A stretch of DNA of 29,100 bases, taken from the IMG/VR virus record IMGVR_UViG_3300023301_000065, positions 1 to 29,100 of that record. One strand, 5' to 3'. A model generated the notes under the pieces. It did no database searches and was not told the origin of the DNA. It saw only the letters and a list, made by a program, of their open reading frames with translations. The position numbers were made by a program, and so were the translations under genes. Every line of letters starts with the position of its first letter. Within the stretch, counting starts at the first letter, position 1. Source of the stretch: a virus. Shown here piece by piece: positions 2,377 through 26,768 of the stretch.

Positions 2377-2748
2377 ATGAAAACATTAAATATGATTCAA
2401 GACTGGAAAGAAAGTGGCTTTAAAAAGAAATATATACAAACAAATGCATGTACAAATTTACCAGTAACGGTGTTTAATAATGGTTGTGACGTTTTATTTA
2501 CTAGTGGTTTCAGTATTGAACCATTTTCAGACCCTAAAAAATGGTCAAAAATATTTTACATATCAAAAGAAAGTTTAGAAAACGAATGGGAAGAAATCGT
2601 AGAAGAATTTGAAATTAAAGGGGCAATAAAAAAAGCTCATGACGGTAACATAATGCTTTCTTTGAGTAGTGGCGTACGATTTATTGGCACAAAACAAACC
2701 TATTCAGAAATTGAGGTTTTAGGAAAATGGATTCAAGTATATATTTAA
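2377..2748 (+). CDS. Hypothetical protein (123 aa)
   Basis: The ATG at 2377 is preferred over an in-frame GTG at 2362 because GGAAGAGGAAATT precedes it at normal spacing. The 123-aa product is soluble, with no recognised motif. Its stop codon lies only two bases before the GTGA that marks the left edge of the IscB element. The element therefore landed just behind this gene without breaking it. Confidence 0.6.
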   Translation: MKTLNMIQDWKESGFKKKYIQTNACTNLPVTVFNNGCDVLFTSGFSIEPFSDPKKWSKIFYISKESLENEWEEIVEEFEIKGAIKKAHDGNIMLSLSSGVRFIGTKQTYSEIEVLGKWIQVYI

Positions 2749-2754
2749 TAGTGA

Positions 2755-3031
2755 ACTACCCACGACTAAAGTCGCAGGCTTCTAAAGCTAAGTTCACCAG
2801 ACTCAGTATCTAGAAACGGATACTACGATAGAAAGGTTATGATACCTACGGTTGACGCATCAGACCGTTGCACTGTCGCTTATAATTAAGAAGAACTGAG
2901 GAAAGGTTCGGTGTTATGAGTGTAAAAAGCTTTTTTATCATTGTCGAGATGGCGTCGGATTCTTATTATGGTAAAAGTAATAAGATACGCAAAACTTACC
3001 GCAAGGTAAAGTATTTATTAGGGGGCTAATT
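2755..3031 (+). ncRNA. Omega RNA / HEARO RNA of the IscB element
   Basis: The 277 bases between the element's left edge and the iscB start contain no credible ORF but several short complementary segments, starting with the CGAC/GTCG hairpin. The placement directly upstream of iscB and the opening sequence match known HEARO (omega) RNAs, which guide IscB. In studied systems the guide is the RNA 5' end, transcribed from DNA just outside the left edge. Here that would be the last roughly 16 bases of the flank ending in GTGA at 2754. Secondary structure beyond the first hairpin was not computed. Confidence 0.8.
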
Positions 3032-4294
3032 ATGGTTTATGTAATTAATTTTGACGGAACTCCGTTAATGCCTTGCACGTCAGTAATCGCAAGATTATTA
3101 TTAAAACAAGGTAAAGCAAAATGTATTAAAAGAACACCATTTACTATTAAACTTTTATATCAAACAACCAATTACACACAATATCTAACACTTGGAATTG
3201 ATACAGGAAGTAGTAAAATTGGTAGTGCTGTAGTAAGTGATAATGGCGGTGTTTTATATTTGTCAGAAGTTAAAATCAGAAATGATATTACTGACAAAAT
3301 GAAACAACGCAGTAAATATCGTAGGAATAGACGTAATAGGAAAACAAGATACAGAAAAGCAAGATGGGCAAATAGGAAAAATAGTATTAGGACAGTTAGA
3401 TTTTCACCTACAATGGTGAGTAAAATTAATAGTCATATTAGAGAATATAATTTTGTAAATTCAATTCTACCTATTAAACATACTATCCTTGAAACAGCAA
3501 CATTTGACGCACATGCATTGAAGAATCCTACGGTTTTGAGTAATAAGTGGTTATACCAAAAAGGTATTAATTATGGATTTGCTAATACTAAAGCCTATGT
3601 TTTAAATAGAGATAACCATACTTGCCAACATTGTAAAGGTAAAACCAAGGATAGCAAACTTGAAGTACACCATATTACATTTAGACGTAATGGTGGTTCT
3701 GACGATTCTGAAAATCTAAAAACACTCTGTAAAACATGTCATGATAATTTACATAGTGGATTAGTTAAATTAACTGGTGGCAAGTCAAAAGGACAATTAA
3801 AACACGCCACTCAAATGAATAGTATAAGAACACAGCTATTAAATATTTTACCATTTGTAGAAGAAACCTTTGGGTTTGTAACTAAGGAACATAGACAATT
3901 ACTAAATCTTCCAAAAGAGCACTATATGGATGCTATAGCTATTGCAAGCCAAGGTAAATATGTAGTCTTTAAAACGCAAGAAGTCATATTAAAAAAGTGT
4001 GTTTCACAAGGTGATTATCAACAAACAAAGGGTGTTAGGTCAGAACAAAGAATCCCAACTAATAAGATACAAGGATTTAGAAAGTTTGACAAGGTTAAGT
4101 ATCTAGGACATGAGTATTTCATTAAAGGTAGAATGTCAACAGGGTATGTAATTCTAATGGACATAGAAGGAAATAAGATAGAATTTTCAAACGCGCCAAA
4201 AGGAATGAAGACAGCAAAGACGAAAAATTTAACAAGAATAAGCAGTAGAAACACATGGTTGACACAAGCAAGACCGCTACAATTCATCCCATGA
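3032..4294 (+). CDS. iscB: IscB RNA-guided nuclease
   Basis: The 420-aa protein has the full IscB order: PLMP domain (PLMP at 11-14), RuvC-I (GIDTGSS, D57), Arg-rich bridge helix (about 93-116), RuvC-II (ILETATFD, E154), an HNH domain with C199/C201, H213-H214, N228 and H237, RuvC-III (KEHYMDAIAIA, H296 and D299), and a C-terminal domain with GFRKFDKVKY and FIKGRMSTGY blocks. IscB is the ancestor-type relative of Cas9 and cuts dsDNA guided by omega RNA. All catalytic residues appear intact. The ATG follows TTAGGGGGCTAATT. The stop codon lies inside the element's right-end hairpin. Confidence 0.96.
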   Translation: MVYVINFDGTPLMPCTSVIARLLLKQGKAKCIKRTPFTIKLLYQTTNYTQYLTLGIDTGSSKIGSAVVSDNGGVLYLSEVKIRNDITDKMKQRSKYRRNRRNRKTRYRKARWANRKNSIRTVRFSPTMVSKINSHIREYNFVNSILPIKHTILETATFDAHALKNPTVLSNKWLYQKGINYGFANTKAYVLNRDNHTCQHCKGKTKDSKLEVHHITFRRNGGSDDSENLKTLCKTCHDNLHSGLVKLTGGKSKGQLKHATQMNSIRTQLLNILPFVEETFGFVTKEHRQLLNLPKEHYMDAIAIASQGKYVVFKTQEVILKKCVSQGDYQQTKGVRSEQRIPTNKIQGFRKFDKVKYLGHEYFIKGRMSTGYVILMDIEGNKIEFSNAPKGMKTAKTKNLTRISSRNTWLTQARPLQFIP

Positions 4295-4307
4295 TTGAAA
4301 TCACGGG
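4288..4307 (+). repeat. Right-end hairpin of the IscB element
   Basis: CCCATGATT and AATCACGGG are complementary around a GA loop, with a single A/C mismatch at the fourth pair. The stem overlaps the iscB stop codon. Imperfect end palindromes of this kind are the sites recognised as single-stranded DNA by Y1 (HUH) transposases of IS200/IS605 elements. The minus strand of the mini-element at 23007-23026 carries the same stem plan with the mismatch at the same position. Confidence 0.75.
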
Positions 4308-4345
4308 TGTTCTTGTAGCTCATATAAATAAAGGGGAAATTAAAA

Positions 4346-18385: not shown

Positions 18386-18415
18386 AAACTCATTTTCAAT
18401 AAATAAAGGGGTATT

Positions 18416-18607
18416 ATGTTAGAAAAGACTAAAGAAAAGTATGATAAAGGTATGGTACTATATTTAAAAGGAGAATTAAGTTTAGTACAAATTAGTAAGA
18501 AATTAACGATACATAGAGGGAAGTTTACAGATTACATGAAACAAAATGGGATTGTAATAGTAAATAAACAAAATGAAGCTAGAAAATTGTCCCTAAAAAT
18601 TTATTGA
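18416..18607 (+). CDS. Intron ORF part 1: helix-turn-helix region of a homing endonuclease
   Basis: ATG follows AAAGGGGTATT. The 63-aa product has a helix-turn-helix-like segment (LSLVQISKKLTIHRGKFTDY, about residues 22-41), typical of the DNA-binding N-terminus of LAGLIDADG-type intron endonucleases. It ends with TGA that overlaps the TTG of part 2 (TTGA). The pair is either one gene broken by a frameshift or two coupled frames. Confidence 0.65.
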   Translation: MLEKTKEKYDKGMVLYLKGELSLVQISKKLTIHRGKFTDYMKQNGIVIVNKQNEARKLSLKIY

Positions 18608-18897
18608 ATCATTTTGTAAGAGGTTTTATAGACGGTGATGGTTCAATATTTATAAGTCAAGGAAGACCAAGATTCGCAATATATAGTGGTTCTAAAGGAT
18701 TTATCCCAGACTTGGTAAAGGAAATGGGTTGGAAACAACTCATAATAAGAAAAGATAAGCAAGCAGAAGTTTATACTACAGAATATAGTGGGAAACAAGT
18801 TTATTACATACTATCTCCTCTTTACGAAAATTCTAATATATATTTAGAAAGAAAATACACCAAATTTATTGAAATAAAAAAGTGCCGTCTTAAGTAG
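18604..18897 (+). CDS. Intron ORF part 2: LAGLIDADG homing endonuclease domain
   Basis: In the -1 frame relative to part 1, the product contains FVRGFIDGDGSIF (residues 4-16), the LAGLIDADG helix with its catalytic acidic residue. A beta-rich core follows (FAIYSGSKGFIPDL, YTTEYSGKQVYYI). At 97 residues it has one motif, so a dimer would be needed for cutting. Such enzymes cut intronless alleles and spread the intron. A TTG start overlapping the previous stop may allow coupled translation. The short linker between the HTH and the motif suggests a deletion-type frameshift. Confidence 0.7.
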   Translation: MNHFVRGFIDGDGSIFISQGRPRFAIYSGSKGFIPDLVKEMGWKQLIIRKDKQAEVYTTEYSGKQVYYILSPLYENSNIYLERKYTKFIEIKKCRLK

Positions 18898-19154
18898 TAA
18901 TACATAAGAATATAAGTGTGGTATTAAGCAGGAAAGTCCTCCCTCATAGAAAGGATAACCCGAACCGAAGTTTTGAACTTAAAAGTCAAAACAGGGGCAG
19001 AGCATAGAAATTGAAACTGTATCTTAAGGTACAGAATATAATATTTCCAAGAGTCCACGCCACCCAATCAAGTAATGTTGTGGGTGAAAAGATATGCCGA
19101 GCTAATCTGTAATGGATTAGAAGTAAGGATAAAAAGCCTTACGATAACAAACTG

Positions 19155-20066
19155 AAAACCCGATTATCTATAGCTAATTTAGCTACGATATGTGCCCCCG
19201 CAATTTACGATAAGCAATTAGGCAAATGGATTAGAAATCCAAATGGAACCGAAAATAGTGGACTGTATGTAGGCACAGAAATGGAGTTGCTTGAAGAAAT
19301 AGACCCTATTCTATGGGCATTTATGGCTGATGTCCCACAAGACCATATTGAATATAATACATATGAGGATGGCGAAGAAGCAAGAGTAGACGAAGCAATT
19401 CGGCTACTATGCGACGAAGGTAACATATGGCTAGAATATGTCCCAGAATACGATTTAATGACGTTAGAGGCAATCATAGAAGAACATAAGCTTAAACATA
19501 AGACATCACACGTTTTCTTCGATTATATCCACACAACAATTGAATTATTGAGCGAATTTGCTGAAAAATCAGTGGTTAAAATGGTTGTTAGAGAAGACCA
19601 GGTATTAGCACAAGTATCAACTACATTAAAACATTTTACAAGGAAATATGATATTTCTCTTGATACAGGGACACAAGTTTCTGGGGATTTTAAAAATGCT
19701 GATAATAGAGATAGCACGATTATTCGTGGTTCTAAAGCTATTGCGGATAAGGGGGATGGATGTTCTGTTGCTATGCCACCTACCGCTATAGAAATGAAGA
19801 AAATAGACGCAATATTAAGAGCAAGAATGGGAAGTCCAAAACCAAACTTAGTAATTTCCGTTTATAAAAACAGAGGGGGGAAATGGAATGACATTAAAAT
19901 TTGGTTATATGTTGATTATGGTACAATGAGAGTCTTTGACCTTTTTGTTACCGACAATGATTATAAATTAGATGGGGAAAAGGTTTTAGGATTAAATAAA
20001 ACATATATTAACATTGAAGAAGAAGGAATTGCGTTTGAAAAACCTACTGAGGTAAAAGTTTACTAG
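19155..20066 (+). CDS. DnaB-like replicative helicase, exon 2
   Basis: This exon supplies 303 residues, beginning KTRLSIANLATICAPAIYD, which completes Walker A. Walker B is HVFFDY (D near residue 352 of the spliced protein), followed by helicase motifs such as QVLAQVSTTLKHF and IRGSKAIADKGD, where the RGSKAIADK segment is typical of DnaB-type motif 4. The frame runs unbroken from 19155, before the first internal ATG at 19281. The stop lies 15 bases before the primase start. Confidence 0.88.
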   Translation, partial: KTRLSIANLATICAPAIYDKQLGKWIRNPNGTENSGLYVGTEMELLEEIDPILWAFMADVPQDHIEYNTYEDGEEARVDEAIRLLCDEGNIWLEYVPEYDLMTLEAIIEEHKLKHKTSHVFFDYIHTTIELLSEFAEKSVVKMVVREDQVLAQVSTTLKHFTRKYDISLDTGTQVSGDFKNADNRDSTIIRGSKAIADKGDGCSVAMPPTAIEMKKIDAILRARMGSPKPNLVISVYKNRGGKWNDIKIWLYVDYGTMRVFDLFVTDNDYKLDGEKVLGLNKTYINIEEEGIAFEKPTEVKVY

Positions 20067-22716: not shown

Positions 22717-22863
22717 TAACATCATGGCCTGAACATGCCTTTTCCTTATTATCGTAAGGGGTATATCCTATATTTGTATATGATATGCTAACGGGGAACC
22801 CTAAGTCTTAAATAGATATGGAAATCCCGTGGGAAAGTTGTTGTATGATTTCAAGAGGTTTAA

Positions 22864-23225
22864 TTGAAAAAATATATATATAAAATTACTAATAAGATTA
22901 ATGGAAAGTCATATGTAGTTCAAACAAGTAATCTAAAAAAAAGATTCCTAGACCATAGAAGAATGGCAAAAAATTCTTCGGCTATTTAAAAAAATTGTCA
23001 AAAACTCTCGTGAATTCATTCATGAGATGAATTGGCTTGAGCGGGAAGCACGTGACTTTAGTCATGTGTAGTTCACAGAGAGCAATAGTAAAGTATGGAA
23101 TAGAGAGTTTTATCTTTGAAATGATAGATTATGGGGAAAACTATAATGAACTAGAAAAAAATATATTAAAAAATAATTATATAACAACTAATCCTGTAAC
23201 GACTATTCCCTTAATAGGGAAGTAG
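22864..23225 (+). pseudogene. Intron-encoded GIY-YIG endonuclease, interrupted by an 86-bp insert
   Basis: TTG at 22864, behind AAGAGGTTTAA, opens MKKYIYKITNKINGKSYVVQ and continues for 41 codons with KRFLDHRRMAKNSSAI before the insert. After position 23072 the same frame continues SQRAIVKYGIESFIFEMIDY to TAG at 23223-23225. Without the insert the ORF would be 91 aa, a GIY-YIG domain without the usual C-terminal DNA-binding modules. The YIG half of the motif reads YVV instead of YIG or YVG, so activity was probably already lost. The 3' end reads into the intron's P7 region. Confidence 0.8.
22987..23072 (-). mobile_element. 86-bp palindromic mini-element (PATE-like) related to the IscB element
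   Basis: On the minus strand it begins directly after GTGA with ACTACACATGACTAAAGTCA, matching 18 of the first 20 bases of the IscB element's left end. Its other end has CTCATGAAT-GA-ATTCACGAG (23007-23026), the same plan as the IscB right-end stem with an A/C mismatch at the same place. It carries no ORF. Exact removal rejoins the GIY-YIG frame. Such miniature palindromic derivatives of IS200/IS605 elements are moved in trans by a Y1 transposase; none is seen in this window. Confidence 0.82.
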
Positions 23226-23360
23226 AGTCACTACTGATACGTGGCAAGGTTCTAGGAAACGAAGCCTTTGAAAATCGAAACGGGTGTGCATATTTTAAGT
23301 TTTTTACTGTAAAATATGTAAGAGATAGTCTGTGCCATTGGAAACAATGGATTCCACATG

Positions 23361-25375: not shown

Positions 25376-25720
25376 AAAGTAGCTTAAATTTTAAACTTTT
25401 ACGCTCTCATGAGAGATATCAAAGTTTAAAGTCATTAGAAAAATACAATAGGGGAATATTATAGTAATATAATATGTTAAGTTTTGTGAACACGTTGGTT
25501 ACGTGGTGTTTAGTTAATTCTATGCTAACGGTGAAAGTCTAAGTCCGAAAAGATATGATAATACCGTGCCAAGCAAAAATAAAAAATATTTTTGAAGGTG
25601 TAACGACTATCCCAAAGGGGAGTAAGATGGATAATAACCACCATTTGAAGCGCAAAACACCCAATCATTAAGTTGAGGGTGAAGATATAGTCTAGCCTTT
25701 ATGGAAACATAAAGTATAAG
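25376..25720 (+). ncRNA. Group I intron 1 of dnaE (345 nt, no ORF)
   Basis: The core has GCTAACGGTG...ATACCGTGCC (P4-P6), P7 CGACTA (25604-25609) with TAGTCT (25688-25693), P8 CACCC/GGGTG, the AAGATATAGTC joint and a P9 hairpin CTTTATG-GAAA-CATAAAG. It contains no ORF. The ends are inferred from protein continuity: exon 1 ends in T and the intron in G at 25720. I could not find a clean P1, so the borders may shift by a few bases (for example T25374 with G25722, which also keeps the frame). Confidence 0.82.
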
Positions 25721-25747
25721 CGAAGCAAATTAAGACCAGAGTTGCCT
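25721..25747 (+). CDS. dnaE: dnaE mini-exon 2 (27 nt)
   Basis: Only nine codons, CGA through CCT, encode RSKLRPELP. They link HWRHL of exon 1 with DIDLDSE of exon 3, giving the DnaE sequence RPELPDIDLD. The exon is bounded on both sides by group I introns. Its 3' end TTGCCT is well supported by P1 pairing of intron 2; its 5' end is less certain by about two bases. Confidence 0.8.
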
Positions 25748-26768
25748 GAACAATATTGGGCATTGAGTGTGAACCTCGCTAGAGGGTGTGTATAGATAAT
25801 CATATCTATATGCTATCGGTATCAGTTGAATAAGACTTCTATACATGCCTTACAAGGGGATTATAGATATAAAAAAGACGAAGCCACTGACTAAGAAAGC
25901 CTAAAGTCCTATTTTAATAGGATAGTTGGTAATACCGAGCCAAGTTACAGTACAATATATCTCGATATAAAGGGGATATAAAATGAGCGAAAGATTAGCG
26001 ATAATTTATAAAATAACAAATATTAAAAATAATTACATATATGTTGGTTCTACAACAAAAACACTAGAAGAAAGATTTTGTGCACACCTTCATAAGTCAA
26101 AGACAGATTTTGATAAATATCTTCTATATAGTGACCTATTGGAACAAGACGAAAAAGATTTTATAATGGTTGCTTTAGATACTAGTTTGATTAAGCATCG
26201 TTTTATAATTGAGGCATATTGGACTAAAAAATTACTAGAAGAGGGAAATGCTATGTATAATATGAAACAAGGTAATACGCACACGCAAAATACAAAGCAA
26301 AGACTATCTGAATCAAGACAAGCAAGTGGGTTTGATTATTCTTCTAATGAGTTTAAAGATAAAATGAGATTAGCAACCTCTGGAATAAATAATGGTATGT
26401 ATGATAAGAAAGACGAAAATGCCGTAAATGGTAGGATAGTTGTTGCATTGGACGATAATGGTAATGTATTTAAAACATTTAATTCAGTTAAAATGGCAAC
26501 TCAATTCTTAAATACAAAAGGACATACCGCATTAGGTAAAGCTTGTAGAAACAACGAGAAATATAAAGGATACTATTGGAAAAAAGAATGGGTTAATCGC
26601 TGATATATTGTACGATAAAAGGTTTAACGACTATTCCGCAAGGAAGTAGATGTAGATTTAAGCACTACATCGAAGCGCATTCACTATTTATTAAAGATAA
26701 ATAGAAGATATAGTCTAATCCCACTATTAAATTAGTGTTAAAGTATCTCGAAAGAGAGGGTATAAATG
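25748..26768 (+). ncRNA. Group I intron 2 of dnaE (1021 nt)
   Basis: P1 forms between exon TGCCT and intron GGGCA, with the splice-site U-G. P10 forms between ATATT just before that guide and the first bases of exon 3, GATAT. P7 is CGACTA (26628-26633) with TAGTCT (26711-26716), followed by a P9 region containing CACTA/TAGTG and TCTC-GAAA-GAGA hairpins. The intron ends in G at 26768. Splicing restores CCT-GAT, that is PDIDLD, the catalytic Asp motif. It carries a GIY-YIG endonuclease gene in a peripheral loop near P6. Confidence 0.92.
25983..26603 (+). CDS. GIY-YIG homing endonuclease with NUMOD modules
   Basis: ATG follows ATAAAGGGGATATAAA, inside intron 2. The 206-aa protein opens with the GIY-YIG domain: IIYKITN (7-13), YIYVGSTTK (18-26), then EERFCAHLH with the catalytic Arg and FIIEAYW with the catalytic Glu. 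Between about 110 and 145 lies a NUMOD3-like stretch (KQRLSESRQ, NNGMYDKKDENAVNG). The C-terminus is NUMOD1-like (RIVVALDDNGNVFKTFNSV, then GYYWKKE). Both bind DNA. It appears complete and is likely to drive homing of this intron into intronless polymerase genes. Confidence 0.9.
   Translation: MSERLAIIYKITNIKNNYIYVGSTTKTLEERFCAHLHKSKTDFDKYLLYSDLLEQDEKDFIMVALDTSLIKHRFIIEAYWTKKLLEEGNAMYNMKQGNTHTQNTKQRLSESRQASGFDYSSNEFKDKMRLATSGINNGMYDKKDENAVNGRIVVALDDNGNVFKTFNSVKMATQFLNTKGHTALGKACRNNEKYKGYYWKKEWVNR

What the first reader, a model, noticed from the sequence alone, without database searches (positions are those of the whole stretch)
2755..4327. Apparently intact IscB and omega RNA element in a phage early region
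All RuvC and HNH catalytic residues, the PLMP domain, the bridge helix and the C-terminal domain are visible, and the upstream 277 bases fit an omega RNA. No transposase is present. An RNA-guided nuclease in a phage genome could act as a homing-type element, as a weapon against co-infecting phages or plasmids, or be a passenger. It lies cleanly between two genes without damaging either.
Basis: partly seen in the sequence, partly recalled or inferred. Interest (0 to 1): 0.75.

Follow-up and report, generated by a model that had tools for sequence, protein, structure and literature searches.

The report
Phage-borne IscB guide-RNA nuclease element
A phage fragment carries an apparently intact small transposon without its own transposase that encodes an RNA-guided DNA cutter (IscB, a Cas9 ancestor) and its guide RNA; it probably cuts copies of the same site that lack it, and its ends match those of a different, widespread transposon type that could move it.

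Summary
An uninterrupted 420-aa IscB (3032-4294) lies behind a strong omega RNA hit (HEARO RF02033, 2751-2959, 107.8 bits). D57, E154, H213, H214, H297 and D300 are all present, and 39 of 63 consensus RNA pairs show compensatory changes. dN/dS against the closest relatives is about 0.15-0.17.

The element spans about 2751-4322. On its right is TATAAA, found next to the right end of nearly all relatives checked and containing ATAAA, the best reported TAM of OrufIscB. In C. difficile phages that lack a related element, the guide sequence runs directly into TATAAA. So the guide (2735-2750) most likely targets the window's own empty site. No exact guide+TAM target was found in 2.9 million viral contigs.

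Close cellular relatives mostly carry tnpA; this copy does not, and two near-relatives sit in 130-135 kb viral contigs without any Y1 transposase. Its terminal hairpins match IS200/IS605 tnpA-tnpB elements rather than its iscB-tnpA relatives, which suggests mobilisation in trans. Miniature omega-RNA-only elements occur too.

IscB/HEARO in viral genomes is already published, so this is a new member of a known kind; the borrowed ends are the fresh part. The window's own empty allele was not found and nothing was tested at the bench.

The parts
2377..2748 (+). left neighbour gene, no known family, stop codon 2 nt before the element
   Evidence: ORF; no homologue in viral contigs, genomes or phages
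2735..2750 (+). inferred 16-nt guide AAGTATATATTTAATA (left flank, 3' end of the neighbour gene)
   Evidence: position by homology with IscB omega RNA architecture; unoccupied alleles of related C. difficile elements read guide + TATAAA; sequence
2751..2959 (+). omega RNA scaffold (HEARO, RF02033)
   Evidence: 107.8 bits; alignment; covariation
2763..2774 (+). left-end hairpin CGACTAAAGTCG, tnpA-tnpB (GAC-TAAA-GTC) type, inside the omega RNA
2960..3000 (+). 3' part of omega RNA, conserved hairpin beyond the Rfam model
   Evidence: alignment and consensus fold
3032..4294 (+). iscB, 420 aa, PLMP, RuvC-I/II/III, RRXRR bridge helix, HNH, C-terminal TAM-interacting region
3200..3202 (+). RuvC-I catalytic D57
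3491..3493 (+). RuvC-II catalytic E154
3668..3673 (+). HNH H213-H214
3920..3931 (+). RuvC-III H297..D300
4276..4319 (+). right end: outer stem GCTACAA/TTGTAGC and hairpin CATGATTGAAATCACGGG (4290-4307)
4323..4328 (+). TATAAA: putative TnpA target / IscB TAM, outside the element
   Evidence: OrufIscB TAM NTAAA in PMC13180657
4346..4615 (+). right neighbour gene, acidic small protein, weak PHROG transcriptional-regulator hit

Best explanation
This is a non-autonomous IS200/IS605-type element made of an omega RNA and iscB. A Y1 transposase supplied in trans placed it 5' of a TATAAA motif in a short intergenic spacer. The DNA left of the element thereby became the guide. IscB loaded with that guide cuts copies of the site that still lack the element (guide followed directly by TATAAA), for example sister genomes after excision or a co-infecting related phage, and recombination with a filled copy restores or spreads the element: a guide-directed homing and retention mechanism. 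The filled site is immune because the TAM is moved away from the guide. Shown here: family, intact catalytic residues, RNA structure, ends, conserved TATAAA, selection on the protein. Inferred: TAM function, cleavage, homing, trans mobilisation.
For: IscB and HEARO; catalytic residues; fold; covariation in 39 of 63 pairs. TATAAA within 130 nt after the last element gene in 18 of 18 relatives against 22% of control windows, and ATAAA at 16-20 nt from the right-end hairpin in 14 of 14. OrufIscB best TAM is ATAAA (PMC13180657). Unoccupied C. difficile phage alleles read guide + TATAAA while pCD1602_4 carries the element there. dN/dS 0.15-0.17 with L002, L007, L097. Related copies at different sites in other viral contigs. 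Right end shared with tnpA-tnpB elements; both hairpin cores of that type. TnpB gene drive in plasmids is a published precedent (PMC11870625).
Against: The window's own empty allele was not found, so the guide target is inferred. The C. difficile pair is not a clean empty/filled pair: the filled phage also lacks about 1.65 kb beside the element. L007 has AATAAA, not TATAAA, at the expected distance. TATAAA is common in AT-rich phage spacers. No expression or cleavage data.
Confidence: 0.75

Rival explanations
1. A weapon against co-infecting phages or plasmids: the guide targets foreign DNA, giving superinfection exclusion.
For: An active nuclease in a phage could do this; cutting a related phage that lacks the element would also hurt that competitor, so the two ideas overlap.
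Against: The guide is the local flank (3' end of the neighbour gene) and no exact guide+TATAAA match exists in 2.9 million viral contigs. Relatives carry different local guides.
Confidence: 0.08
2. A neutral passenger or decaying transposon copy without function for the phage or itself.
For: It lacks tnpA, and some relatives are decayed (L006 and L005 iscB frameshifted; L195 omega RNA with an iscB stub).
Against: Uninterrupted ORF, all catalytic residues, folded omega RNA and intact ends here; dN/dS 0.15-0.17. Selection may, however, have acted mostly before it entered this phage.
Confidence: 0.15
3. Domesticated RNA-guided regulator, like TldR in prophages, using the guide for binding without cutting.
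For: [quoted passage not shown]
Against: RuvC and HNH residues are intact, the guide follows the insertion site instead of being conserved, and transposon ends are kept.
Confidence: 0.02

Closest known systems
IscB / HEARO (OMEGA) RNA-guided nucleases, e.g. OgeuIscB, OrufIscB
   Same: PLMP, RuvC, RRXRR, HNH, upstream HEARO omega RNA, ATAAA beside the right end
   Different: compact (420 aa), carried by a phage, no tnpA; TAM not measured
iscB-tnpA elements of Desulfosporosinus, Spirochaetia and others (L097-L100, L102-L104) and Clostridioides phage pCD1602_4 (L096)
   Same: up to 78% IscB identity for L097; same layout omega RNA-iscB-right hairpin-TATAAA
   Different: they keep tnpA downstream of iscB and have CCTAAAGG-type end hairpins
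IS200/IS605 tnpA-tnpB elements (L185, L186, L188; E. faecium plasmid NZ_CP017794)
   Same: right-end sequence (left end in tnpA sense) and GAC-TAAA-GTC hairpins at both ends, ATAAA beside it
   Different: encode TnpA and TnpB, no iscB or HEARO
HEARO nucleases in viral genomes (PMC9755519) and HEARO in Silviavirus staphylococcal phages (PMC13346280)
   Same: IscB/HEARO systems in phages, mostly without TnpA nearby
   Different: other phages; ends, TAM side and empty sites were not described in the passages read
TnpB gene drive of IS200/IS605 in plasmids (PMC11870625)
   Same: the proposed logic: nuclease guided to the element-free site
   Different: TnpB with TnpA on plasmids, shown experimentally

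Membership tests
IscB (OMEGA) nuclease | IscB family profile above curated cut-off | tested here: met
   NF040563 328.9 bits, cut-off 175
IscB (OMEGA) nuclease | PLMP motif, split RuvC with HNH insert and catalytic residues | tested here: met
   D57, E154, H213/H214, H297/D300 invariant
IscB (OMEGA) nuclease | IscB fold | tested here: met
   best PDB matches are IscB complexes, E 2.9e-24; model pLDDT 76 with weak stretches
IscB (OMEGA) nuclease | HEARO omega RNA directly upstream | tested here: met
IscB (OMEGA) nuclease | guide-directed DNA cleavage with a 3' TAM | not testable with these tools
   TATAAA at the predicted place only
IS200/IS605 element | subterminal hairpins at both ends | tested here: met
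IS200/IS605 element | own Y1 TnpA (autonomy) | tested here: not met
   none in the 29.1 kb record; hence filed as non-autonomous; the record is a fragment
IS200/IS605 element | insertion beside a fixed short motif without target duplication | tested here: inconclusive
   TATAAA side consistent in relatives; no empty allele for the window
homing element | nuclease targets the element-free allele of its own site | tested here: inconclusive
   supported by the C. difficile relative, not shown for the window

The most novel reading that the evidence does not exclude
The phage IscB elements have swapped their ends: they lost tnpA and carry tnpA-tnpB-type hairpins at both ends, so a TnpA from a different IS605 lineage (about 30% identical) mobilises them, while omega-RNA-only miniatures exploit IscB in trans. 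This would make IscB a freely exchangeable guide-directed homing module among phages.
Probability: 0.45. Interest if true: 0.65.

Novelty: new member of a known kind. Interest (0 to 1): 0.42.

Why it matters
It gives a compact, apparently intact phage IscB with defined ends, a predicted guide and a predicted TAM, so RNA-guided homing between phages becomes directly testable. If the shared ends mean trans mobilisation, they explain how iscB elements without tnpA still reach new sites, which bears on why most IscB genes are found without a transposase.

Tried and rejected
Direct empty site for the window: searches with the left neighbour gene in viral contigs, genomes and phages, with its conserved end as a DNA pattern, with the right neighbour gene and with guide+TATAAA all gave nothing; the accessory region 1-4.7 kb is hypervariable among about 80 relatives that share the 690-aa gene. 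An empty site for relative L002 through its DNA ligase neighbour: closest ligases 56% identical, no shared upstream gene. A single origin of the tnpA-less phage copies: AU test rejects one clade, p 0.008, so tnpA was lost more than once or the ends recombined. The shared right end was absent from GenBank phages.

Full report
What was checked. The window is a 29.1 kb virus record of IMG/VR. Rfam HEARO matches 2751-2959 on the plus strand at 107.8 bits, above the 83-bit cut-off, and the ORF 3032-4294 encodes a 420-aa IscB. All RuvC and HNH catalytic residues are present and invariant among 25 relatives, they align with the OgeuIscB structures, and the predicted fold matches IscB-omegaRNA-DNA complexes first. 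The model is only moderately confident (mean pLDDT 76; stretches 107-120 and 173-194 below 50).

The RNA. In an alignment of 16 relatives the consensus fold has 63 pairs, of which 39 show compensatory changes. The alignment to the Rfam model has a handful of non-standard pairs. The first stem pairs GTGAAC (2751) with GTTCAC, so the scaffold begins at 2751 and the guide lies just upstream, in the last codons and stop of the left neighbour gene: AAGTATATATTTAATA, 2735-2750. The guide position is by analogy with known IscB omega RNAs (established knowledge), not measured.

The ends. The right end is a hairpin, CATGATTGAAATCACGGG (4290-4307), inside an outer stem GCTACAA/TTGTAGC whose outer pairs differ between copies yet stay paired. 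The iscB stop codon lies inside this hairpin. Next to it stands TATAAA (4323-4328). Among 18 relatives, TATAAA occurs within 130 nt after the last element gene in all 18, against 22% of control windows; counted from the right-end hairpin, ATAAA stands 16-20 nt away in 14 of 14; L007 reads AATAAA there. Relatedness inflates these counts, but the members span from about 40 to 78% IscB identity. OrufIscB prefers ATAAA as TAM (PMC13180657), so TATAAA is the likely TAM.

Empty site. None was found for the window itself. A diverged relative in Clostridioides phage pCD1602_4 (L096, with HEARO, iscB and tnpA) gave a partial test: two related C. difficile phage or plasmid records without the element there (L124, L182) read the same left flank running directly into TATAAA. 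The pair is not clean, because the occupied phage continues at another TATAAA about 1.65 kb further on and lacks the genes between.

Transposase and the borrowed ends. Most close cellular relatives carry a Y1 tnpA after iscB; the window, L002, L006 and L007 do not. The 135 kb and 130 kb contigs of L002 and L007 hold no Y1 transposase at all, nor does the window. A scan of viral contigs with the window-type right end found seven stretches. Two are L002 and L007, one is an omega-RNA-only element (L189), and four are IS605-type elements with TnpA and/or TnpB on the opposite strand (L185, L186, L188, L190). The same end beside annotated tnpA and tnpB occurs in an E. faecium plasmid. Both hairpin cores of the window copy are of the GAC-TAAA-GTC kind found in tnpA-tnpB elements, whereas iscB-tnpA relatives have a C-G pair there. 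The two TnpA types are about 30% identical. The simplest reading is that the phage elements are mobilised in trans by the tnpA-tnpB type of TnpA; this is inference. The AU test rejects one clade for the four tnpA-less phage copies (p 0.008), so tnpA was lost repeatedly or ends were exchanged.

Selection. dN/dS of iscB is 0.15-0.17 against L002, L007 and L097, with synonymous sites near saturation, so the exact value is soft; the direction (strong constraint) is not. Related copies sit at different places in viruses that do not share the window's conserved 690-aa gene.

Mechanism. Insertion 5' of TATAAA turns the left flank into the guide; the RNP then recognises only element-free copies of the site, where guide and TAM are joined; breakage there and repair from a filled copy restores or spreads the element. 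TnpB does this in plasmids (PMC11870625). New sites cannot be reached this way, so occasional TnpA in trans is needed. A targeted weapon against unrelated phages has no support: no exact guide+TATAAA site in viral contigs and only weak, 4-mismatch matches inside the window.

What is known. HEARO/IscB in viral genomes, and rarely beside TnpA, was reported in PMC9755519, and HEARO in staphylococcal Silviavirus phages in PMC13346280. The find is therefore a new member of a known kind. The shared ends with tnpA-tnpB elements, and omega-RNA-only miniatures (L189; L193 in a 284 kb contig that also holds two iscB copies), were not met in the papers read; that is not proof of novelty.

Noticed in passing
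L189:968-1321 (83 kb viral contig) and L193:1900-2260 (284 kb contig): Omega-RNA-only miniature elements: HEARO plus right-end hairpin plus TATAAA-like flank, without iscB inside; the 83 kb contig has no iscB or Y1 transposase, the 284 kb contig has two iscB copies elsewhere.
   Followed up: partly
window 25387-26766: Group I intron (RF00028, 66.4 bits) with a GIY-YIG homing endonuclease gene interrupts the DNA polymerase III alpha gene.
   Followed up: partly
window 18406-19281: DnaB-like helicase gene is split at its Walker A motif; a weak LAGLIDADG-type ORF lies between the halves, probably a degenerate intron; no Rfam intron hit.
   Followed up: no
window 22719-23358: RecJ-like gene seems split in a similar way, with a short endonuclease-like ORF at 23037-23225 that matches no Pfam family.
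   Followed up: no
L096 against L124, about 1.65 kb: Beside the iscB-tnpA element of Clostridioides phage pCD1602_4 the genes between two TATAAA motifs (Fic-like and a HipA-like ORF in L124) are missing, as if the element had caused an adjacent deletion.
   Followed up: partly
L182:3572-3679: Fragment of an omega RNA 93.6% identical to that of L096 in a C. difficile plasmid-phage, apparently a remnant.
   Followed up: no
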